The notes beneath the pieces are model-generated. The model saw only the letters and a program-made list of their open reading frames with translations, was not told the DNA's origin and ran no database searches. From a bacterium (GTDB lineage Bacteria; Ratteibacteria; UBA8468; B48-G9; DTJG01): a stretch of DNA of 32,034 nt. The DNA lies in the NCBI GenBank assembly GCA_029552985.1, contig JAKPDB010000143.1, positions 1-32,034 on the forward strand, given 5' to 3'. A program made the translations under genes and the position numbers. This document shows, piece by piece, positions 2,417 to 27,642 of this stretch (position 1 is its first letter; each line of letters begins with the position of its first letter).

Positions 2417-3199
2417 TCAAATAGGTTCAATTTGAGGAAATACGCAGAGCGCAGCGCCATAGGCAACCACAAACCCTGGATTATCAAAAATTCTAATGTT
2501 TCTTCCACTGATCTTTTCAATTGCCTGCTTCAGTCCAGGTATTTCTGCTGGACCACCACAGAAAAAAACCGGAATCTGACTCTGGAAATGGTTTAACATG
2601 GTTGAAATTCTTCCGGCAATTGCATTGAGAAGCCCAGCAGCGATGTTGTCCTTCTTTTCATTATGGGCAAGCAGAGAAATTACCTCACTTTCTGCAAAAA
2701 CACTGCATGTGGCATTGATAGTCACAGGTCTTTCTGCTTTTAAAGACAATGTTCCAAATCCATGAAGGTCTGTGCCTAAAACACCCGCCATCATTTCAAG
2801 AAACCTTCCTGTACCAGCCGCACACTTGTCATTCATTAAAAAATCAACAACCTCTCCATTATGGTCCACCTCTATAATTTTTGTGTCCTGGCCACCAATA
2901 TCAATTACAAGACATCTCTGTTTTCCGGAAAGTAAAAAGGATGCCTTTGCCGCAGCAGAGATTTCTGTGACTGTCGCATGTGCCTTTGTAAAAATGTATC
3001 TGCCATAACCCGTACATACAATTTTTTCAATGAGAGAAAAATCAATCTCCGCATTTTTTAATGCCTGCTGCAGAACTGTGTCTGCGATAATTTCAGGCAT
3101 TGGACCATTCCTTGCTGCGGATTTTGCGATGATTGTCTCACCATTCACAATTACACATTTCACCATCACAGAACCCATATCAATACCTGCCTTCAACAC
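2417..3199 (-). CDS. BadF/BadG/BcrA/BcrD-type ATPase; HgdC-like activator (reductase) of 2-hydroxyacyl-CoA dehydratase / double-cubane protein
   Basis: KAGIDMGSVMVKCVI, VIDIGGQDTKII, MNDKCAAGTGRFLEMMA, CSVFAESEVISLLA, FFCGGPA motifs. GTG start at 3199 preferred over the ORF-track ATG at 3229 because AGGAGG lies just upstream. Confidence 0.88.
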   Translation of the reverse strand: MLKAGIDMGSVMVKCVIVNGETIIAKSAARNGPMPEIIADTVLQQALKNAEIDFSLIEKIVCTGYGRYIFTKAHATVTEISAAAKASFLLSGKQRCLVIDIGGQDTKIIEVDHNGEVVDFLMNDKCAAGTGRFLEMMAGVLGTDLHGFGTLSLKAERPVTINATCSVFAESEVISLLAHNEKKDNIAAGLLNAIAGRISTMLNHFQSQIPVFFCGGPAEIPGLKQAIEKISGRNIRIFDNPGFVVAYGAALCVFPQIEPI

Positions 3200-3209
3200 A
3201 TTTCCTCCT

Positions 3210-4454
3210 TCATACCTTGCGGGATTCAATCATTTCCCTGAATGCTTCCATTCTGGTTTTTAATTGTCCTGTGTCTTCCTTTCCAAGGTCTGTTTTTATT
3301 GAAAGAAATGGTATCCCTTTTTCTTTCAGAATCTGCCTGATTAATGCTGTTTGTAATTCAAAAACCTGGCACAATCTCAGATTGTAATAAATGATGCCGT
3401 CAAGTTTGTACTGATTCACAGTATCAATCATAAGATTGACCAGTTTTTCAAGATTCAGCATACATGGACACATGCTGCCGGCGATATCTTTCAATGTTAG
3501 AGCTCGCAAAATACCTGCTTCTGTTTCTTCATCTATCAGCACAGGATTATAGAATCTTCCGAATGATATGCACTGAAGATCTGCTGCCATTTTTAATCCA
3601 GATTCTTCCATCACATCAATAATCTTAAAATTGGGAAATATCACAGGTGTTCCAGCAAGAAGAACTCTGGGTTTATCAACAAATTTGTGAATTTGTTTTG
3701 CCTGTCGATAAACTTTCCCTGCAAGAGCATTCCATTTTTCAACCTTCATAAAAAAACCAGCATACATCATGATGTAATAATCAAAAACATTAATCGAATC
3801 CGGCTGTTCTGCTCTTAATTGATAAATGCTTCTGAAAATCTCTGTGCGGGCATTTGTAAGTTTGCACGCTGAAAGTAACTGGCGTCTTCCTGCATTGCAG
3901 TGAAATGTTTCTTTCAAAAACTGGAAAAATTGTGTATATTTTTTTTCCCAGACGTCGACATTGCCCAGGTATTCAGAGTTCCTTCCAATGTCAAGAAAAT
4001 ACACCTGTTTTACGGGTGATAGAATCTCAGCAAGTTTTGCTTTTGGGTCACATGTACCGGGGATAACAACAACTTCCAGATTGTCATATGTATTGCTATA
4101 AAATTTACCGCAGATTGATTTGATGACAGGGCAAATATCTCCAGGCACAATCTCTTCTCCTTTTGAACCGCATCCATAGTCCTCGCAGCACAACCTTACA
4201 GGTCGCAGAGAACAGGCAAGCATGATTTCCTCAGGAACAATGTTGCAAAAAAAGCCAACGGGTTTTTCACTGTTATCTATTCCATTTCTTTCAAAATCTA
4301 AAATCTCCTGATAGAACCCTTCCATTGAAGAAAGATTGGATTTTTTCATATACTCAACAAGGACATGATCTGGTATATTGTCAGAGTCAGAGCTACTGCA
4401 TTTCAGGTTTTTAAGCAACATTTCTTCGTACTGGCTCAGAAACTTTTTTTGCAT
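3210..4454 (-). CDS. 2-hydroxyacyl-CoA dehydratase HgdB/BcrC-fold protein; candidate double-cubane cluster protein
   Basis: 414 aa; DICPVIKS, VVIPGTCDPKAKL, FSIK-like C-terminus and conserved Cys residues; AAAGGAG SD before ATG at 4454. Confidence 0.8.
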   Translation of the reverse strand: MQKKFLSQYEEMLLKNLKCSSSDSDNIPDHVLVEYMKKSNLSSMEGFYQEILDFERNGIDNSEKPVGFFCNIVPEEIMLACSLRPVRLCCEDYGCGSKGEEIVPGDICPVIKSICGKFYSNTYDNLEVVVIPGTCDPKAKLAEILSPVKQVYFLDIGRNSEYLGNVDVWEKKYTQFFQFLKETFHCNAGRRQLLSACKLTNARTEIFRSIYQLRAEQPDSINVFDYYIMMYAGFFMKVEKWNALAGKVYRQAKQIHKFVDKPRVLLAGTPVIFPNFKIIDVMEESGLKMAADLQCISFGRFYNPVLIDEETEAGILRALTLKDIAGSMCPCMLNLEKLVNLMIDTVNQYKLDGIIYYNLRLCQVFELQTALIRQILKEKGIPFLSIKTDLGKEDTGQLKTRMEAFREMIESRKV

Positions 4455-5484
4455 CTAATGTTCTCCTTTGCATATTACCAATCTTTTTTCCAAAAAAACT
4501 AACGTTCAAACAGCCCTTTCTTGGACACACTTCCACGCATCTCATGCACATGATACAACCTGCTTGATTATAAATGGCATCCCTATTCAACTGGTACATT
4601 GCTGTCAGCCCCATGGGACAGGCATCCGCACAGTATCCGCACTTAATACACTTGATGGCTTTCTTATGAAGTTCTATTCCTGAACCTTTATTGAACCAGG
4701 AATTAATCAGTCCTACAACACACATATGACACCAGACCCTTCTTCCAAAATAAAATGCTGCAACAAAAAGTCCCAGTACAATCCAGGCAAGGATTGTAAA
4801 GCAGGTGGTAATACCGGTTGAAAAGTCCTTCCAGTTCGGTTTTATCAGACCAAACATCGGACATATCAATCTTGCAGGACATATCTGACAGTAAGGAAGA
4901 AACCAGTAGCATTGAAATCTTGCGTAATTTGGCATGCCTATGACAGTTGAAATAGCAAGAGCAATTACCATCAGTGAATATCCTGTGATGGAAAGGTTAA
5001 GTCTGAATCGTTCTGGAAACCTTCTGACAGGGATATTCATTTTCCTGCGCAGATATGTAAGGAAATCTCCAACTGTTCCGATTGGACACACCCATCCGCA
5101 CCACACCCTTCCAAGCAGAAAACACAGAGCAATAAAAAGAGTGATATATGGCAAAAGATACTTGAAAGATGTTTGCCAGGTGAGATTTTCTGAAAGAAAG
5201 TGCATGATGCATGCCTTAAACATGCCTCCTTTTGGATTAAATCTGCATACAAGTGAAGGTGGATAGTTTTCAATTACTGGTGTTGCTCCTGATGGCCATA
5301 GAATGCTTCCCTTTTCAAACTGTGTTGTGGACACGCTTCCTTCTGGTGCTTTGAGAGTAGGAAAAATCTTTTGCTGGCTGGTTTCAGCGGATTCTTTCCA
5401 GTCCTTAAAAATATAACCACCATAAACAAGAAGCACAAAGCAGATAATTTGAACGATTCTTCTTGCGACTGAAATACGTATCAT
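4411..5484 (-). CDS. Polytopic 4Fe-4S membrane protein, NapH/YccM-like
   Basis: GRVWCGWVCPIGT, C-x2-C-x2-C-x3-CP ferredoxin motifs (CIKCGYCADACP, CIMCMRCVEVCP), several hydrophobic segments; start at 5484 overlaps upstream stop (ATGA). Confidence 0.82.
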   Translation of the reverse strand: MIRISVARRIVQIICFVLLVYGGYIFKDWKESAETSQQKIFPTLKAPEGSVSTTQFEKGSILWPSGATPVIENYPPSLVCRFNPKGGMFKACIMHFLSENLTWQTSFKYLLPYITLFIALCFLLGRVWCGWVCPIGTVGDFLTYLRRKMNIPVRRFPERFRLNLSITGYSLMVIALAISTVIGMPNYARFQCYWFLPYCQICPARLICPMFGLIKPNWKDFSTGITTCFTILAWIVLGLFVAAFYFGRRVWCHMCVVGLINSWFNKGSGIELHKKAIKCIKCGYCADACPMGLTAMYQLNRDAIYNQAGCIMCMRCVEVCPRKGCLNVSFFGKKIGNMQRRTLDAKKVSEPVRRNVA

Positions 5485-6038: not shown

Positions 6039-7069
6039 TGCTCAAAAACAATCTGACCGAACCCTTTTTCCTGATGATAGGATGATGCATCAACTGCCCA
6101 GAAACTTTCTTCAGGGGATTGCGTTGCCTTTGTTCGTATGATTTTCAAAGCCCAAATATTTCCTGATTCAGGAACCCTGGCTCCGATAGAAGAAAAGGGA
6201 ATCGCAACTTCAACCATCCACGCAGTCACACCTTTTGACATAGCATATTTCAATCCATTTATAGATACTGTTTGAAATTCACCGTTGACACTGGTCTTTT
6301 TGCAGGAAATTTTTTCGTCGCCTGTTAGAATAATAGAATAATAATTTTTCCCTGTCCGGTCAGGTGATACCTGTATTTCAATCTTATCCTTATCTGAGAT
6401 TTTTTCTGGGGTTCCGTCCCTGCAGTAAAATGCAAGATACATTGCTTCTGAGTCATATGCAAGCAACCCGACGGTCTGATAGACGGGCTTACCCTGATTA
6501 AACAAACAGAAATTTCCTGCAACGCCGGCATTTTTCCAGCATTCTTCAATAATCTTTCCATCTATTTTCGGAGACTGGTGTGTTCTGCGAACAGGTAGAA
6601 TTGACTGTGTTTTCATCAAAGGAACCTGACGGGTTTCCTGTGTTTCTTTTTTTATTTCACCAGGGTCTTTTTTATCACCTGCTATATCAATGCTGAAACT
6701 TTTGAATTGTCTTCCACCACCAACCAGTTTGAAAGTTACAGGATAATTTCCTGATGAGGTAGAAGGTTTGGGAATCATTGTCACTTCAAAATACACCCTC
6801 TGGTCTTTTGGAATTGACATCTTTTCAGGATAAATCTGGAAGTCAAATGCAGGGCTATCAGCAAGCAACTTTATTTCTGCGATGCCTCTATCCATATTAT
6901 TTTGCAGAAAGATTTTGAATGTCGTTTTGTCTTTCACAACAATATTGTATGTTTCTGGTTTAACAATCAGTTTGTCTGCCTGACGGAAAACATTATCACA
7001 GAGATGTCCGTACGAGGGAAAAATAAAGATGCTAAAAGAAAAAATCACAGCCGCATATATTTTTCTCAT
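6035..7069 (-). CDS. Exported protein with a CBM9/DOMON-like sugar/haem-binding fold domain
   Basis: Signal peptide MRKIYAAVIFSFSIFIFPSYG; ..PKIDGKIIEECWKNA..YDSEAMYLAFYCRD..IPFSSIG..WALKIIR pattern typical of CBM9-like domains. Confidence 0.65.
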   Translation of the reverse strand: MRKIYAAVIFSFSIFIFPSYGHLCDNVFRQADKLIVKPETYNIVVKDKTTFKIFLQNNMDRGIAEIKLLADSPAFDFQIYPEKMSIPKDQRVYFEVTMIPKPSTSSGNYPVTFKLVGGGRQFKSFSIDIAGDKKDPGEIKKETQETRQVPLMKTQSILPVRRTHQSPKIDGKIIEECWKNAGVAGNFCLFNQGKPVYQTVGLLAYDSEAMYLAFYCRDGTPEKISDKDKIEIQVSPDRTGKNYYSIILTGDEKISCKKTSVNGEFQTVSINGLKYAMSKGVTAWMVEVAIPFSSIGARVPESGNIWALKIIRTKATQSPEESFWAVDASSYHQEKGFGQIVFEQ

Positions 7070-12816: not shown

Positions 12817-13908
12817 ATGAAGGGATATCTCGTTATTGAAGACGGCACTATATATACTGGCGAAACATTTGGCAGCCAGGCCGAACGATTTGGTGAATTA
12901 ATTTTCAATACAAGTATGACAGGATACCAGGAAATCCTTTATGACCCATCCTATAAAGGTCAAATCGTTGTCATGACATATCCACTGATAGGAAACTATG
13001 GAATCAACAGCCAGGATGTGGAATCATACAAAATTCATCTTGAAGGATTTGTTGTCAGGGAAAAAAGCAAAATCTATTCAAACTGGAAAGCAGAGAAATC
13101 CATTGACCAGATTTTCAAGGAAAACGGAATTACTGGAATTGAGGGTGTTGACACAAGAAAAATCACAGAACTTATTAGAGATAAGGGCGCACAGAAAGCA
13201 GGGATATTTGTCGGCAGTCAGGATAAAAGACAGATGCTTGAAAAGGTTAGAAAATCTCCTTGTATTGTTGGCAGGGATATAGTAAAAGATGTTATCAAAG
13301 GTGAGCCATTTATCTGGAATAATCAGGGTAAATATAAGGTTGTTGTGATTGACTGCGGTGTAAAATACAACATTCTCAGACTTCTTGCAGAAAAAAATCT
13401 GAAGGTAGTAGTGTATCCGGCGAATGCGCCATATGAAGAAATAGATAAGGAAAAACCTGATGGGATTTTAATTTCCAATGGACCAGGAGATCCTGAGCCA
13501 TTGACATATGTAATAAAAACTGTTTCAAATCTTGTTGAAAAATATCCTGTGTTTGGAATCTGCCTTGGTCAGCAAATTCTTGGACAGGTTTTTGGCGGGA
13601 AAACGTATAAATTAAAGTTCGGCCATCATGGTGCAAACCATCCCACAAAAGATTTGAAGACAGGAAAAATCTCAATAACAGTCCAGAACCATGGATTTTG
13701 CGTTGACATCAATTCAATCAAGGACCCAAATATTGTTATTACGCATATCAATCTCAATGACCAGACACTTGAGGGCATAGAACACAAGAAACTTCCTGTA
13801 TTCAGCGTTCAATTTCATCCAGAAGATTCACCTGGTCCACAGGATGCACGATATCTGTTTGAAAAATTTTATAGGATCATTGATCATGGGAAAAAGAACA
13901 GACATTAA
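12817..13908 (+). CDS. carA: Carbamoyl-phosphate synthase small (glutaminase) subunit
   Basis: [70 protein letters not shown]. Confidence 0.97.
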
Positions 13909-15535
13909 GAAAATTTTGCTCATAGGTTCAGGACCCATTGTCATAGGGCAGGCATGTGAATTTGACTATTCAGGTTCACAGGCATGCAAGGCATTGAAAG
14001 AAGAGGGCTATAAAGTGGTTCTTGTTAACAGCAATCCTGCAACTATTATGACAGACCCAGAAATGGCTGACAAAATTTATCTTGAACCGCTTATCCCTGA
14101 AATTCTTGAGAAAATCATAGAAAAAGAAAGACCTGATGCTTTGCTTCCGACTCTCGGCGGACAGACCGCATTGAATCTTGCCACAAAGCTATATGAAATG
14201 GGAGTTCTTCAGAAGTATCATATGAAAATGATAGGTGCAAACTACCAAGCAATAAAAAAGGCAGAAGACAGAGAATGTTTCAAACAATCAATGAAAAAAA
14301 TTGGGCTGAAAGTGCCTGAAAGCGGGATTGCCCGCAGTTTGAGAGAAGCAATTGAGGTGGTAGGAAAAATTGGTTTTCCTGCTATCATAAGACCTGCATA
14401 TACACTTGGAGGTACCGGTGGTTCTGTGGCATATAACATAGAAGAGTTTGAAGAACTTGCAGAGGCAGGATTGAAGGCAAGTTTTATTGGAGAAATTCTT
14501 GTGGAACAATCAGTCCTTGGATGGAAGGAGTATGAATTAGAAGTAATGAGAGACCTGAAAGACAATGTGGTGATTATCTGCTCAATAGAGAATTTTGATC
14601 CAATGGGAGTTCATACAGGAGACAGCATCACAGTTGCACCTGTTCAAACCCTAACAGATAAAGAATATCAAGAAATGAGAAATGCGGCCATATCAATCAT
14701 CAGAGAAATAGGCGTTGAAACAGGTGGTTCAAATATTCAATTTGCAGTAAATCCTGAAAATGGAGAGATGGTTGTCATCGAAATGAATCCCCGCGTATCA
14801 AGGAGTTCAGCCCTTGCTTCAAAGGCAACAGGTTTCCCGATTGCGAAAATTGCCACAAAGCTTGCCATTGGTTATACGCTTGATGAGATACCAAACGATA
14901 TAACAAAAAAGACGCCTGCCTGTTTTGAACCTGCCATTGACTATTGTGTTGTCAAAATCCCAAAGTTTAATTTTGAAAAATTTCCAGGAGCATCTGATGT
15001 GTTAACCACCTCAATGAAGTCGGTTGGCGAAGTCATGGCGATTGGCAGGACTTTTAAAGAAGCGTTCCAGAAGGCGCTTAGAAGCATGGAAGAAAATTTT
15101 GCGGGCTTTGAAGATATTGCATTGAAACTTGACCTTCATGAGGGATTGAGAATTCCAAATTCAAAAAGGGTCTTCTATATTAAACAAGCTCTGAAACAGA
15201 ATTGGACCATTGATGAAATTTATCATCTGACAAAAATTGACAGATGGTTTCTTGCAAACATCAAAGAAATCGTTGATTTTGAAAAAATGCTTGAAAGACA
15301 AAAAGGAAAAACTGTTGATTTTGAAACGATGAAAAAAGCAAAGGAACTGGGATTTTCAGACAGTCATATTGCTAAAATTTTGGGATGCAGTGAGAGAAAA
15401 ATCCGAAATCTGCGAAAAAGGTATAACATAGTCGTTGACTATAAATGTGTGGACACATGTGCAGGTGAATTTGTTGCCTATACCCCTTATTATTATTCAA
15501 CTTACGAACATCCAGAAGTAATAAAAATCACATGA
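13886..15535 (+). CDS. carB: Carbamoyl-phosphate synthase large subunit, N-terminal half
   Basis: [69 protein letters not shown]; internal start at 13886 preferred over ORF-track 13844. Confidence 0.95.
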
Positions 15536-17085
15536 AGAAAAAGGTTGTGATACTTGGCGCAGGGCCAAATAGGATAGGTCAGGGAATAGAGTTTGATTAT
15601 TGCTGCGTTCATGCTTCATTTGCCCTGAAAGAAATTGGCTATGAAAGTATCATGGTGAATTGTAATCCTGAAACTGTTAGTACCGATTATGATACCTCTG
15701 ATAAACTCTACTTTGAGCCGCTGATATTTGAGGATGTGATGAACATTATTGAAAAAGAAAATCCTCTGGGTGTTATACTACAATTTGGAGGCCAAACCCC
15801 ATTAAAACTTGCAATTCCATTAAAAAAGGCAAAAGTGAACATTCTTGGAACAAGCCCTGACGCAATCGATATTGCAGAGGATAGAAAGAAATTTAAAAAA
15901 CTCCTTGATAAACTTGGGCTTATGCAACCACCGAGTGGTACAGCCAGAAATAAGAAAGATGCATTAAAGATTGCTCACCAACTTGAATATCCTGTACTTG
16001 TAAGGCCATCATATGTGCTGGGTGGAAGGGCGATGCAGATCGTCTATGACGATGGTATGCTGCAGGAGTTTATGGAAAAAGCCATTGAAGTTTCGCCAGA
16101 ACATCCTGTGTTAATAGACAAATTTCTTGAGGATGCCGCTGAGGTGGATGTTGATGCAATATGTGATGGAAAAACATGCGTGATTGGTGGAGTAATGGAA
16201 CACGTGGAGCAGGCAGGTATTCATTCTGGAGACAGTGCGATGGTGCTACCACCTTATAGTTTGAAGGAAAAAGTCATTAACGAAATCAAACAAGCAACAA
16301 AAAAACTCGCCCTATCTCTGAACGTTGTGGGACTGTTGAATATTCAATTTGCTGTGAAGGACGACAATGTTTATATTCTTGAGGTAAATCCACGCGCTTC
16401 AAGAACTGTGCCTTTTGTAAGCAAGGTTACAGGTGTTCCCCTTGCAAAACTTGCAACGAAAATCATGCTGGGTATGAGTTTAAAAAAATTGCATTTTGAA
16501 AAAGAAATTCGTCTCAATTATTTTGCTGTAAAAGAATCAGTGTTTCCATTCAACAGATTCTCTGGTATCGATGCTGTGTTAGGTCCTGAAATGAGGTCCA
16601 CCGGTGAAGTAATCGGCATTGACGAAAGTTTTGAAATGGCGTACGCAAAAAGCCAGCTGGCAGCAGGTCAAAATCTTCCACTCAGTGGAAATATTTTTAT
16701 CAGTGTTCGGGACAATCATAAAGAGTTAATTTATCCTATAGCAAAGGGTTTTGCTGAACTTGGATTCAAAATTATCACGACTGCTGGAACCGGGAAATTT
16801 TTGTCAGAAAAAGGGCTTGAAGTAACAATTATCGGCAAACTTCATGAAGCAGTAAGACCCAATGTCATTGACTATATAAAAAACAATCAGATTCAGATGA
16901 TTATCAATACTCCAACAGGAAACAGGCCAAAACAGGATATTGTTTCTATCAGAACAATGGCAATACATAGAAGCATTCCTCTTATCACAACAGCGCGAGC
17001 AGCGCATGCAACATTGCTTGCAATGAAAAGATTAAAGGAGCACAAAATACAGGTAAAGGATATTAAACAATACCATATGATGTAG
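15532..17085 (+). CDS. carB: Carbamoyl-phosphate synthase large subunit, C-terminal half including MGS-like allosteric domain
   Basis: [93 protein letters not shown]... Confidence 0.95.
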
Positions 17086-17147: not shown

Positions 17148-17843
17148 ATGGAAGGAAAAACTATTCAACAACAGATTGAAGCCCTGACGAAAATCAGTAA
17201 GGCAATTACTTCTGACCTGTACCTTGAGGACATTCTCAAACTCATAGTGCTTGTGACTGCAGAGCTAATGGGCTCCAACATCTGTTCTATACTTTTGCTT
17301 GATGAAAAAACCAAAAAACTACATATCAGAGCGACCCAGAGCGTCAGTGAAGAATATAATAAAAAACCACCATTAAGCATAGGCGAAGGTATTGCTGGAA
17401 AGGCTGTAAAGGAAAACAGACCCATTGTTGTCAAAGATGTTACAAAGGAAGAAGAATATAAATACAGGGATATTGCCATAAAAGAAGGACTCTGTTCTTT
17501 ATTATGCGTGCCCCTTGCAATCAAAAATCGGGTAATCGGTGTTATCAATTGCTACACTTCAAAACCGCATGATTTTACAGAAACAGAAATAAAAATTTTG
17601 ACCACAATTGCAAATCAGGCGGCAATGGCAATTGAAAATGCAGAACTGCTAGTAAAAAGTAAGGTGATCCAGGAAGAGCTTGAAACGAGAAAGCTTGTTG
17701 AAAGAGCAAAAGGAATTTTGATGAAGAAAGAAAACCTTACTGAAGAGGAGGCATACAGGAAAATCAGAAAGTACAGCATGGATAAGCGCAAGACAATGAA
17801 GGAAATAGCCGAAGCCATTATTCTTGCCTCGGATTTGATATAA
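17148..17843 (+). CDS. GAF domain - ANTAR domain RNA-binding antitermination regulator
   Basis: N-terminal GAF pattern (SNICSILLLDEKTKKLHIRATQS...GEGIAGKAVKENRPIVV...SLLCVPLAIKNRVIGVINCYT) and C-terminal ANTAR (LVERAKGILMKKENLTEEEAYRKIRKYSMDKRKTMKEIAEAIILA). Confidence 0.92.
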   Translation: MEGKTIQQQIEALTKISKAITSDLYLEDILKLIVLVTAELMGSNICSILLLDEKTKKLHIRATQSVSEEYNKKPPLSIGEGIAGKAVKENRPIVVKDVTKEEEYKYRDIAIKEGLCSLLCVPLAIKNRVIGVINCYTSKPHDFTETEIKILTTIANQAAMAIENAELLVKSKVIQEELETRKLVERAKGILMKKENLTEEEAYRKIRKYSMDKRKTMKEIAEAIILASDLI

Positions 17844-17845
17844 AT

Positions 17846-17873
17846 TTGACAGATAAAATTTTTGTGGTAATAT
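17846..17873 (+). promoter_or_regulatory. Candidate sigma70 promoter driving leader RNA 1
   Basis: TTGACA (17846-17851), 16 nt, TAATAT (17868-17873); predicted start about 17880, just before hairpin P1. Confidence 0.6.
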
Positions 17874-17892
17874 GTTACTGAATTAGATTCGT

Positions 17893-17925
17893 GCACGAAG
17901 TTGTGCGAGCTGGACGATGAGGTCC
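17893..17925 (+). ncRNA. Candidate ANTAR-responsive tandem hairpin (leader 1: P1 17893-17906, P2 17912-17925)
   Basis: P1 GCAC-GAAGTT-GTGC and P2 GGAC-GATGAG-GTCC: 4-bp stems, hexaloops closed by C-G, 5-nt linker; directly downstream of an ANTAR gene and upstream of a nitrogen gene. Confidence 0.75.
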
Positions 17926-17963
17926 TTTTCGGCGCAGAATGCCGGAAGGGACTTTTTTATTTT
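17922..17963 (+). terminator. Intrinsic terminator in leader 1 sharing its 5' arm with P2
   Basis: GTCCTTTTCGGC-[GCAGAAT]-GCCGGAAGGGAC (12 bp incl. two G.U) followed by TTTTTTATTTT; GTCC 17922-17925 is also the 3' arm of P2. Confidence 0.85.
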
Positions 17964-17983
17964 AACCAGGACAGGGGGAAAAA

Positions 17984-19552
17984 ATGTCTTACAGCAAACC
18001 AAATGCCAGTGCAGCCACAGGTACGAGAAATCGTGTGCATCCTTCGCCACTATCAGGGTTATGCGTCACATGTCTTGATGGTTGTATTGGACTATGTGAA
18101 GTCGCAAAATCAGGGATAAGGGGCAGAGAAATACTTTATCCCCAGCCATTTGGAAGCATTGTAGCTGGTTCTGAAAAGGACTACCCGATTGATTTTTCTC
18201 ATTTCAATATCATGGGTAGCTGCGTTGGCGCACAAGGAGTTGAACCAGATTCTGACCATGCCATATTTCCAAACGTGGATATATCAACAGAAATTGGCTT
18301 TCAGAATAAACTGAAACTGGATGTACCGTTTTTTACAGGCGCCCTGGGTTCAACAGATGTTGCGAAAATTAACTGGGAAGAAATTGCAATAGGCGCTGCG
18401 TTGTGTGGAACCATTGTGGTTATAGGAGAAAATGTATGCGGAATGGACCCAGAGGCAAAATTTCAAAATGGAAAAATTGTCAAATCTCCTGAAATGGAAA
18501 GAAGAATAAAGAGTTATCAGAGATGGCACAATGGAAGAGGGACTATTGTTGTTCAATATAATGTGGAGGATAGCAGATTTGGAGTGCCTGAGTATGTTGC
18601 AGGACTCGGCGTTGAAGCCATAGAACCAAAATGGGGTCAGGGTGCAAAGGATATTGGCGGAGAAGTGAAACTTCATGACCTTGAGTTTGCAAAAGAGATG
18701 AAAAAAAGAAATTATCTGGTGTTTCCTGATCCTGACAATCCCATCACTCAGAAAGAATTTAAAGAAGGAACCATCAAGGAATTTGAAAGACATTCAAGGT
18801 TGGGAATGGTGGATGAAGAAGGATTTTATAAAGAAGTTGAACGATTGAGGAAGATTGGCTTCAAGTATGTCACATTGAAAACTGGTGCGTATAGACCGGC
18901 AGACCTTGCAAGAGCAATAAAATGTGCATCAGTTGCGAAAATTGACCTTCTTACAGTAGATGGTGCTGGTGGTGGAACAGGCATGAGTCCCTGGAGAATG
19001 ATGAATGAATGGGGTATTCCAACAGTGGAACTTGAATGCTTGCTCTATCAGATGCTTAAAAAAATTGAAAAGAAGTCCTGGTACATACCATCAGTGGCAA
19101 TGGCAGGCGGGTTTGCACTTGAAGACCAGATTTTTAAGGGGATAGCTCTTGCTGCGCCATATATCAAAGCCATTTGTATTGGACGCGCGACCTTTGCTGC
19201 AGTGATGGCAGCAAAAACTGTCGGAAATCTTGTGAAAAAAGGCAAAATACCAGAGGAATACAAAAAGTATGGAACTACAATTGAGCAGATTTTCGTTTCT
19301 GCTGAACCGTTGAAGGCAAAATTTGGAAAAGATTTTAAGAATATTCCAGCTGGTGCTATTGGAATGTATACCTACTATGATAGGCTGGCAACCGGTCTTA
19401 AACAATTGATGGCAGGCGAAAGGAAATTTGCACTCAAATATATTTCGCGACGGGATATTGCAGCAATTACAAAACAGGCATCTGAGATATCTGGTATTCC
19501 TTATGTAATGGACTGTGATAAAGAACTTGTGGAAAAAATACTGGATGAATAG
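17984..19552 (+). CDS. FMN-binding glutamate synthase family protein (stand-alone GltB central domain with N-terminal Cys motif)
   Basis: VDGAGGGTGMSPWRMMNEWGIPTVE, KWGQGAKDIGGEV, N-terminal LCVTCLDGCIGLCEVAKSG; no GATase or GXGXG domain. Confidence 0.85.
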   Translation: MSYSKPNASAATGTRNRVHPSPLSGLCVTCLDGCIGLCEVAKSGIRGREILYPQPFGSIVAGSEKDYPIDFSHFNIMGSCVGAQGVEPDSDHAIFPNVDISTEIGFQNKLKLDVPFFTGALGSTDVAKINWEEIAIGAALCGTIVVIGENVCGMDPEAKFQNGKIVKSPEMERRIKSYQRWHNGRGTIVVQYNVEDSRFGVPEYVAGLGVEAIEPKWGQGAKDIGGEVKLHDLEFAKEMKKRNYLVFPDPDNPITQKEFKEGTIKEFERHSRLGMVDEEGFYKEVERLRKIGFKYVTLKTGAYRPADLARAIKCASVAKIDLLTVDGAGGGTGMSPWRMMNEWGIPTVELECLLYQMLKKIEKKSWYIPSVAMAGGFALEDQIFKGIALAAPYIKAICIGRATFAAVMAAKTVGNLVKKGKIPEEYKKYGTTIEQIFVSAEPLKAKFGKDFKNIPAGAIGMYTYYDRLATGLKQLMAGERKFALKYISRRDIAAITKQASEISGIPYVMDCDKELVEKILDE

Positions 19553-19565
19553 ATTTTCGAAAATC
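19552..19565. repeat. Perfect 14-bp palindrome GATTTTCGAAAATC
   Basis: Self-complementary; overlaps the last base of the upstream stop codon. Confidence 0.7.
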
Positions 19566-19589
19566 GGACAGCACGATATAGAAAAAATT

Positions 19590-19690
19590 CAGTAAGCGAC
19601 GAAGATTACTGGACAATGAAGTCCAGAGCCCATCAGGGAAGATTTCAATAAACCACCGAAGGTTTTCAGTCCAATAACGACGTTGTTATT
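19590..19690 (+). ncRNA. Candidate ANTAR-responsive leader 2 with four hexaloop hairpins
   Basis: H1 19590-19611 CAGTAAGC-GACGAA-GATTACTG (one G.A mismatch); H2 19609-19626 CTGGAC-AATGAA-GTCCAG; H3 19650-19665 AAACC-ACCGAA-GGTTT; H4 19673-19690 AATAAC-GACGTT-GTTATT. H2 matches leader 1 P2 at 14 of 16 positions. Confidence 0.65.
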
Positions 19691-19781
19691 CTATTAATAG
19701 TTGAATATCTTTAAAGAGATAAGAGGGATATTTTTAGAGTTTCGAGTTTAGGGTTTCATCGAGGGCACGACATCATTTGTT

Positions 19782-19804
19782 CCCTCTCCCTTGATGGGTG
19801 AGGG
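19782..19804. repeat. Imperfect palindrome CCCTCTCCCTTGATGGGTGAGGG, possible REP-like element
   Basis: CCCTC-T-CCC / GGG-T-GAGGG arms with TTGAT loop; resembles dispersed intergenic palindromes seen in many bacterial genomes. Confidence 0.45.
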
Positions 19805-19865
19805 TGCAAAGGAAGGGTAGGGAAGAGTAAAAATTCGCGCAAACTTCTAACAAAAAGGGAGAAAT

Positions 19866-26290: not shown

Positions 26291-26319
26291 GTTCTGCGTA
26301 AGATAATTGGAGGTAATAC

Positions 26320-27642
26320 ATGGACAACAACGAAGTTTTGAAACAGGTTAGAGTTGACAGGGTGCAATTTGTAGAATTGTGGTTTGTTGATATTCTGGGA
26401 CAACTGAAGACAGTCACAATCACAACTGATGAACTTGAAAAAGCGTTTGATGAAGGAATTGGATTTGATGGTTCCTCAATAGAGGGGTTTGCAAGAATCT
26501 ATGAAAGTGACCTGGTTTTGAAACCTGAGCCAGATACATATCTTGTGCTACCATGGTCAAAACTTCCAACAGTGAGATTTTTCTGCTCTATTTATACTCC
26601 TGAAGGAAAATTTTATGATGGTGATTCAAGGTACGCGTTGAAAAGGTATCTTGAAAAAATCAAGGAGAACGGTTATACAATGAATGTGGGACCTGAGCTT
26701 GAATATTTTTATTTTAAGACACCAGAAAATCCTGGTCTTATTGACCAGTCGACATATTTTGATTTTATTCCTGCAGACATTGGTTCTCAGGTGAGAAATG
26801 AAACAGTATCTTTATGCGCAAAAATGGGAATGAAGGTTGAGGCAGCTCATCACGAGGTTGCTCCAAGCCAACATGAGATTGATGTAAGATATGCGGATGC
26901 CCTGAAAATGGCTGATATGATGGTAACATTGAAGGTGCTGATAAAACAGGTTGCTGCTGAACATGGTATTTATGCAACATTTATGCCAAAACCCCTTTTC
27001 GGTCATAATGGAAGCGGACTACATATTCATCAGTCCCTTTTCAAAGATGGCAAAAACGCATTTTTTGATGAGAAAGACCCGAATTATCTCTCATCAATTG
27101 CAAAGTCATACACTGCAGGCATTCTGAAATACATCAGGGAGATTACATCCATATGCAATCAATGGGTTAATTCATATAAACGGCTTGTTCCTGGATTTGA
27201 GGCGCCAGTTTATATTTCCTGGGGAAGAAAAAATCGTTCTGCCCTTGTTCGGGTTCCCATTTATAAACCTGGCAAGGAAAGCGCCAGTCGCATTGAATTG
27301 AGAAGTCCTGACCCTGCGTGCAACATGTATCTTGCCTTTACAGTGATTCTTGCTGCTGGATACGCTGGAATAGACGAAAATCTCAAATTGCCAGAACCTG
27401 TTGAAACAGACATTACAGACATTTATGAAATGACTGCTGAAGAAAAGGCAAAAAACAGCATAGAAACATTGCCCGGTAGTTTAATCGAGGCCATTCATGA
27501 AACTGAAAAGAGCAAACTTGTTAGGGATGCCCTCGGTGAACATATATTTACAAAATTCATAGAAAACAAGAAGATTGAATGGGATAAATACAGAATATGC
27601 GTTAGCCAGTATGAACTTGAAAATTATTTCCCTGTACTCTGA
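26320..27642 (+). CDS. glnA: Glutamine synthetase type I (paralog 2)
   Basis: GIGFDGSSIEGFARIYESDL, VGPELEYFYF, AAHHEVAPSQHEIDVRY, FMPKPLFGHNGSGLHIHQSLF, NSYKRLVPGFEAP, KNRSALVRVP; GGAGG SD. Confidence 0.96.
   Translation: MDNNEVLKQVRVDRVQFVELWFVDILGQLKTVTITTDELEKAFDEGIGFDGSSIEGFARIYESDLVLKPEPDTYLVLPWSKLPTVRFFCSIYTPEGKFYDGDSRYALKRYLEKIKENGYTMNVGPELEYFYFKTPENPGLIDQSTYFDFIPADIGSQVRNETVSLCAKMGMKVEAAHHEVAPSQHEIDVRYADALKMADMMVTLKVLIKQVAAEHGIYATFMPKPLFGHNGSGLHIHQSLFKDGKNAFFDEKDPNYLSSIAKSYTAGILKYIREITSICNQWVNSYKRLVPGFEAPVYISWGRKNRSALVRVPIYKPGKESASRIELRSPDPACNMYLAFTVILAAGYAGIDENLKLPEPVETDITDIYEMTAEEKAKNSIETLPGSLIEAIHETEKSKLVRDALGEHIFTKFIENKKIEWDKYRICVSQYELENYFPVL

What the first reader, a model, noticed from the sequence alone, without database searches (positions are those of the whole stretch)
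19590..19735. Second leader with four hexaloop hairpins upstream of glnA: a possible double ANTAR target
Seen: four hairpins in about 100 nt, loops GACGAA, AATGAA, ACCGAA and GACGTT, all closed by C-G, all with purine 1 and G4; two (AATGAA, ACCGAA) match A1/G4 exactly. H2 (CTGGACAATGAAGTCC) matches leader 1 P2 (CTGGACGATGAGGTCC) at 14 of 16 positions, with differences only in the loop ends. Taken as pairs, H1/H2 and H3/H4 would make two tandem ANTAR sites, unusual relative to the single two-hairpin unit. H1 and H2 overlap by CTG, so they may also compete. The 3' arm of H4 (GTTATTC 19685-19691) can instead pair with GAATATC (19703-19709), and AATATC/GATATT (19704-19709/19727-19732) precedes a short T-run; both are weak terminator candidates.
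Basis: partly seen in the sequence, partly recalled or inferred. Interest (0 to 1): 0.82.

Follow-up and report, generated by a model that had tools for sequence, protein, structure and literature searches.

The report
Beaded ANTAR RNA array before glnA
The RNA leader of a glutamine-synthetase operon carries a string of five small look-alike hairpins of the kind bound by ANTAR regulators, where the textbook target has two; relatives carry similar strings before their ammonium-assimilation genes, often without the transcription terminator that ANTAR proteins are known to override.

Summary
The four hairpins are real, at the stated coordinates and far beyond chance. Loops start at 19598, 19615, 19635, 19655 and 19679, i.e. 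17-24 nt apart. The genome encodes one ANTAR protein, upstream in the same gene cluster. Leader 1 (17893-17965, before glt1) is a classic ANTAR attenuator (P1, P2, terminator sharing the P2 arm). Relatives show a lineage-wide pattern: arrays of 3-4 C-[RNNGNN]-G hairpins precede glt1, amtB and gdhA (pairs or shorter sets precede glnA, glnB and nadE), some ending in a terminator whose own tip is a hexaloop, others with no terminator. Serial attenuators, two or three in a row, occur in related genomes. So 'more than one ANTAR unit' is supported; the strict division into H1/H2 plus H3/H4 is not. Best reading: a poly-hexaloop ANTAR loading array regulating the glnA operon; the output step in leader 2 is inferred, not shown. 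A new variant of a known kind.

The parts
17148..17843 (+). GAF-ANTAR regulator gene, the only ANTAR protein in the genome
   Evidence: Pfam GAF_2 (6e-27) and ANTAR PF03861 (1e-22); one genome match; ANTAR domain aligns to EutV 6wsh/6ww6, Rv1626 1s8n and NasR 4akk
17846..17873 (+). sigma-70-like promoter of leader 1 / glt1 (TTGACA-16-TAATAT)
   Evidence: consensus scan; not evidence of function by itself
17893..17925 (+). leader 1 ANTAR pair: P1 GCAC[GAAGTT]GTGC and P2 GGAC[GATGAG]GTCC
   Evidence: R1 30.6 bits (a training sequence); similar P1 in L108, L133, L134
17919..17965 (+). leader 1 intrinsic terminator and T-run, 5' arm overlapping the P2 3' arm
   Evidence: dG -23.2; 16 pairs then T-run
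17984..19552 (+). glt1, glutamate-synthase-domain protein (PF01645)
19590..19611 (+). H1, loop GACGAA at 19598-19603
   Evidence: sequence
19609..19626 (+). H2, loop AATGAA at 19615-19620
19632..19643 (+).
   Evidence: R1 match 19611-19644, 23.6 bits; coordinates
19650..19665 (+). H3, loop ACCGAA at 19655-19660
   Evidence: pairing probability 0.92
19673..19690 (+). H4, loop GACGTT at 19679-19684
19595..19687 (+). competing compact fold: stem A 19595-19614 with 19669-19687, stem B 19617-19623 with 19641-19647, H3 retained
   Evidence: MFE; no more stable than expected once the hairpin stems are held fixed
19721..19806 (+). segment containing two stretches (19721-19768, 19781-19806) of dispersed intergenic repeats, between array and glnA
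   Evidence: matches on C8, C123, C142
19866..21188 (+). glnA, type I glutamine synthetase, followed by glxB-like, gltB-like, ferredoxin and reductase genes

Best explanation
Leader 2 is an ANTAR-protein target made of a string of five hexaloop hairpins, and the GAF-ANTAR protein encoded two genes upstream acts on it to control glnA and the genes behind it. The hairpins are evenly spaced (loop to loop 17-24 nt). By the published hand-off model, in which an ANTAR dimer contacts one hexaloop at a time and moves from an upstream recruitment hairpin to the next one, an array offers several consecutive docking sites while the RNA is made. Shown here: the anatomy, its statistical reality, the single regulator, and recurrence of multi-hexaloop leaders before ammonium-assimilation genes in relatives. 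Inferred: that the protein binds leader 2, that binding is sequential, and that binding raises glnA expression by keeping the nascent RNA in the array form instead of the compact alternative fold (attenuation or mRNA-level control). The output step is the least certain, because leader 2 has no good intrinsic terminator.
For: Array statistics. Sole ANTAR protein beside the array. Unbiased loop test: among 86 hexaloop hairpins (stem of 4 or more, any loop) in 30 leaders, 57 have A1, 57 have G4 and 51 have C-G closing; shuffled fractions are 0.33, 0.23 and 0.16, and loops of 4, 5, 7 or 8 nt show no such G4 bias. R1 found sites it was not trained on before gdhA (G010, G027), amtB (G008, G009), a glnB operon (G008), glnA (G010) and glt1 (G014). 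The own genome's only R1 hits are the two leaders. 24 of 35 class genomes carry an ANTAR protein. Among 25 control genomes none had an R1 hit below E 0.05, and the best (0.052) is in one of only three that encode an ANTAR protein. L106, with the same order ANTAR-glnA-glxB-gltB-fd-nox, has two serial hexaloop/terminator units before glnA. Single-hexaloop binding and hand-off: PMC8934654.
Against: No terminator, so the known output is missing. H1 needs a G.A mismatch; H1 and H4 have G, not A, at loop position 1. The isolated leader prefers a fold that breaks H1, H2, H2b and H4. No relative has an alignable five-hairpin glnA leader; the closest glnA (G009, 82%) shows two hexaloop hairpins, and G021 (75%) none. 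Repeat-type DNA between array and glnA could mean a damaged leader. G010 (96% complete) has arrays but no ANTAR gene was found.
Confidence: 0.6

Rival explanations
1. One reading: two complete P1/P2 attenuators in series, H1/H2 and H3/H4, each with its own weak terminator.
For: Serial attenuators exist in relatives: L106 (two before glnA), L098 (three before the ANTAR gene), L115 and L116 (two). Stem B (19617-19623/19641-19647) begins in the H2 loop like the terminators of relatives.
Against: Stem B has no T-run (AATAAACC follows), the H4-linked hairpin is weak, and 19727-19732 is in repeat-type DNA. H2b breaks the H1/H2 plus H3/H4 division.
Confidence: 0.17
2. A decayed leader: an ancestral attenuator whose terminator was lost when repeat-type DNA came in, leaving hairpins without regulatory output.
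For: Repeat-type segments at 19721-19768 and 19781-19806; no terminator; strong alternative fold.
Against: Five intact G4 hexaloops with C-G closing at even spacing would not be expected to persist without selection. Terminator-less arrays exist without visible repeats in G002, G007, G008 and G009.
Confidence: 0.15
3. Translational control: the array controls ribosome access to glnA, as ANTAR RNAs overlapping the RBS do in actinobacteria.
For: Published for mycobacteria/actinobacteria (PMC8164766). Some terminator-less arrays of relatives end near the SD, and in G002/G007 the H1 3' arm is complementary to the SD (sequences).
Against: In the window the array ends about 165 nt before the glnA SD, and no consistent anti-SD pairing is seen across relatives.
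Confidence: 0.12
4. The compact long-range fold is the selected structure and the hexaloops are incidental.
For: MFE z -3.4 to -4.2 against dinucleotide shuffles.
Against: With the hairpin stems and loop positions 1 and 4 held fixed, random linkers fold as stably in 27% of trials, so the fold follows from the hairpins' cross-complementarity. In most relatives' arrays the hairpins form on their own.
Confidence: 0.05
5. Ribosome-mediated attenuation through an 11-codon ORF, MKSRAHQGRFQ (19616), with two Gln codons.
For: The ORF exists.
Against: No Shine-Dalgarno, starts inside the H2 loop, no terminator, not seen in relatives' leaders by inspection.
Confidence: 0.02

Closest known systems
ANTAR dual-hairpin antiterminators (EutV/eut, NasR/nasF, AmiR/amiE; PMC3369931)
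   Same: Stems of 3 bp or more, hexaloops with purine 1 and G4, short linkers, nitrogen genes; leader 1 of the window fits the architecture (with G instead of A at loop position 1).
   Different: Leader 2 has five hairpins and no overlapping intrinsic terminator.
ANTAR regulon of Desulfotomaculum acetoxidans (13 elements in six transcription units; PMC3369931)
   Same: Several elements per transcription unit before nitrogen genes.
   Different: Described there as separate transcription attenuation systems; sequences not compared here.
EutX/Rli55 RNA, ANTAR motif plus an extra single hexaloop (PMC8934654)
   Same: More than two hexaloops in one RNA.
   Different: A protein-sequestering small RNA, not an mRNA leader array.
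Actinobacterial RBS-overlapping ANTAR RNAs (PMC8164766)
   Same: ANTAR RNA without terminator.
   Different: There the RNA covers the RBS or start codon; here it ends about 165 nt upstream.

Membership tests
ANTAR-target RNA | at least two hairpins, stem of 3 bp or more, 6-nt loops, short linker | tested here: met
   H2, H2b, H3, H4 with linkers of 5-7 nt; R1 23.6 bits
ANTAR-target RNA | A1 and G4 in each loop | tested here: inconclusive
   G4 in all five; A1 in H2, H2b, H3; G1 in H1 and H4. G1 also occurs in leader 1 and in relatives
ANTAR-target RNA | ANTAR protein in the same genome | tested here: met
   one, in the same gene cluster
ANTAR-target RNA | direct binding by the ANTAR protein | not testable with these tools
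   needs EMSA or SPR
ANTAR transcription attenuator (P2/terminator type) | intrinsic terminator that overlaps the P2 3' arm | tested here: not met
   leader 2: best -6.8 kcal/mol, no T-run at stem B. Leader 1: met (-23.2)
RBS-overlapping ANTAR RNA | motif covers the RBS or start codon | tested here: not met
   array ends 19690; glnA ATG 19866
ANTAR protein (PF03861) | ANTAR domain over Pfam cut-off, aligned with RNA-binding EutV | tested here: met
   80 bits, cut-off 27.3; EutV match E 5e-12
Rfam RNA families | match to any Rfam 15 family | tested here: not met
   no relevant match at 17880-19740

The most novel reading that the evidence does not exclude
Terminator-independent ANTAR regulation by poly-hexaloop arrays: a chain of three to five evenly spaced hexaloops acts as a loading and hand-off track for ANTAR dimers on nascent mRNA and controls nitrogen-assimilation genes without an overlapping intrinsic terminator.
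Probability: 0.25. Interest if true: 0.75.

Novelty: new variant of a known kind. Interest (0 to 1): 0.52.

Why it matters
Why two hexaloops are required when a dimer contacts only one, and whether ANTAR RNAs work without terminators, are open points in the ANTAR field (PMC8934654). Natural arrays of 3-5 evenly spaced hexaloops, some with and some without terminators and apparently served by one ANTAR protein per genome, are a ready-made length series for testing hand-off, cooperativity and terminator-independent output. They also suggest ANTAR control of core ammonium assimilation (glnA, glt1, amtB, glnB, gdhA) in uncultured bacteria, where such regulation is little known.

Tried and rejected
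Pattern GGACRNNGNNGTCC in the own genome gave two extra sites (C87, C102), but they had no partner hairpin and appeared to lie inside coding DNA, so they were taken as chance. MAFFT misaligned hairpin pairs of unequal linker (A1-A3); solved by padding linkers with N (A4, A5). The covariation counts on A5 (94% of cells paired, 30 double changes against 8.3 shuffled) are partly circular because hairpins were picked for pairing; the test is the less biased one. The compact fold as a selected structure was rejected after the stem-preserving null. A common anti-SD mechanism for terminator-less arrays was looked for by eye and not found consistently.

Full report
OBSERVATION. The four hairpins were read directly at the stated coordinates. 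All have hexaloops with a purine at 1 and G at 4, closed by C-G. H1 is the weakest: after the closing C-G comes a G.A mismatch, then CAGTAA/TTACTG. A covariance model of hairpin pairs (R1) matched the window at only two convincing places, leader 1 (17893-17925) and leader 2 (19611-19644). With it, the otherwise long gap between H2 and H3 disappears and the loops start at 19598, 19615, 19635, 19655 and 19679, i.e. steps of 17, 20, 20 and 24 nt.

SIGNIFICANCE. The chain score of leader 2 is 33.3 with a maximum of 11.5 in 500 dinucleotide shuffles. Scanning both strands of the whole window for three or more such hairpins with linkers of 14 nt or less returned exactly the two leaders; 1.2 Mb of shuffled sequence returned none, and 2 Mb of strand sequence from loci brought in by the ANTAR search returned seven, mostly in GC-rich genomes. 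A test without any loop constraint over 30 leaders of this regulon gave A1 in 57 of 86, G4 in 57 of 86 and C-G closing in 51 of 86 hexaloop hairpins, against 0.33, 0.23 and 0.16 in shuffles; loops of other lengths show no such G4 bias. The leaders were partly chosen because they looked like arrays, so this describes the set rather than estimating a rate.

SURROUNDINGS. The gene order is a carB half, GAF-ANTAR gene (17148-17843), leader 1, glt1, leader 2, glnA, glxB-like, gltB-like, ferredoxin, reductase. The genome has a single ANTAR protein; its domain aligns with RNA-binding EutV, NasR and Rv1626. A TTGACA-16-TAATAT promoter precedes leader 1; no + strand promoter-like site was listed between glt1 and leader 2, so leader 2 is probably transcribed from upstream (inference). 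Leader 1 has the textbook ANTAR attenuator layout: P1, P2, and a -23.2 kcal/mol terminator whose 5' arm overlaps the P2 3' arm.

NO TERMINATOR IN LEADER 2. The best terminator-like hairpin is -6.8 kcal/mol and the consensus scan lists none on the + strand. The leader in isolation folds into a compact structure (stem A 19595-19614/19669-19687, stem B 19617-19623/19641-19647, H3 kept) at -28.2 kcal/mol against -13.5 for the four hairpins. It is stable compared with plain shuffles (z -3.4 to -4.2) but not when stems and loop positions 1 and 4 are held fixed (27% of trials as stable). It therefore follows from cross-complementary hairpin stems and is not evidence of a second selected structure, though it may compete with the array.

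RELATIVES. ANTAR orthologues were found in most class relatives and in Omnitrophota, Aerophobetes, Auribacterota, Elusimicrobia and others. Four-hexaloop arrays precede glt1 in G002, G003, G005 and G007; three precede it in G001 and G017 (a fourth in G017 has an A-T closing pair). R1 then found sites it was not trained on before gdhA (G010, G027), amtB (G009, G008), a glnB operon (G008), glnA (G010) and others. Two architectures recur. In one, the array ends in a terminator that shares an arm with the last hairpin and often carries a hexaloop as its own tip (glnA of G003, G015, G024; glt1 of G018 and G014). In the other no good terminator is seen (glt1 of G002, G007, G017; glnA of G009; leader 2). 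Serial attenuators occur in related genomes: L106, with the window's operon order, has two before glnA; L115 and L116 have two and L098 three. Control: 25 genomes outside the class gave no R1 hit below E 0.05; the best (0.052) is in G049, one of only three control genomes with an ANTAR protein.

MECHANISM. Ramesh et al. (PMC3369931) defined the dual hairpin with A1/G4 and the P2/terminator switch; a later structural study (PMC8934654) found that a dimer contacts a single hexaloop with G4 as the only base-specific contact, that a 20-nt linker extension abolishes antitermination, and proposed hand-off from a recruitment hairpin to an antitermination hairpin. An evenly spaced array fits that model as several consecutive docking sites. 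Binding, order of binding and the regulatory output of leader 2 are inferred. I commit to an ANTAR-binding array that regulates the glnA operon (0.6). How it does so is open: attenuation by remodelling of nascent RNA is my first choice, translational control or a decayed leader the main rivals.

KNOWN OR NEW. ANTAR control of nitrogen genes and several ANTAR elements per transcription unit are published (PMC3369931). ANTAR RNAs without terminators are published for actinobacteria, where they often cover the RBS (PMC8164766). I found no description of arrays of three to five hexaloops with or without terminators, within an open-access literature search only. Hence: new variant of a known kind.

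Noticed in passing
L098 about 5130-5340; L115 about 3080-3210; L116 about 6880-7040; L106 10700-11030: Two or three ANTAR-like attenuators in series, each with its own terminator, upstream of the ANTAR gene itself (L098, L115) or glnA (L106); suggests autoregulation of the ANTAR gene in some related genomes.
   Followed up: partly
L055, L057, L059, L084, L137, L106 17730-17763: Terminators whose apical loop is itself an A/G1-G4 hexaloop, so the terminator tip may also be an ANTAR site.
   Followed up: partly
L102 1628-1740, L103 1412-1515, L117 787-897, L119 2438-2543: Leaders between ANTAR gene and glt1 without hexaloop arrays but with a recurring possible three-way-junction layout; no Rfam match; the alignment is weak.
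   Followed up: partly
L115 about 3085, L100 about 4154, L106 leader, L083 leader: P1 hairpins that seem to have a 7-nt loop (e.g. AGGGTCA, AGTGTAA) with A1 and G4 kept.
   Followed up: no
window 13844-17085: Carbamoyl-phosphate synthase large subunit encoded as two genes that overlap by 4 nt.
   Followed up: no
window 19721-19806; contigs C8, C123, C142: Dispersed intergenic repeats (TTTTTAGAGTTTCGAGTTTAGGGTTTC and TCCCTCTCCCTTGATGGGTGAGGGTG types).
   Followed up: partly
window 26320-27642: A second glnA-like gene in the same cluster, without a convincing hexaloop leader (R1 9.9 bits at 26313).
   Followed up: no
G010 (C17, C37): Arrays before gdhA and glnA although no ANTAR protein was found in this 96% complete genome.
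   Followed up: no
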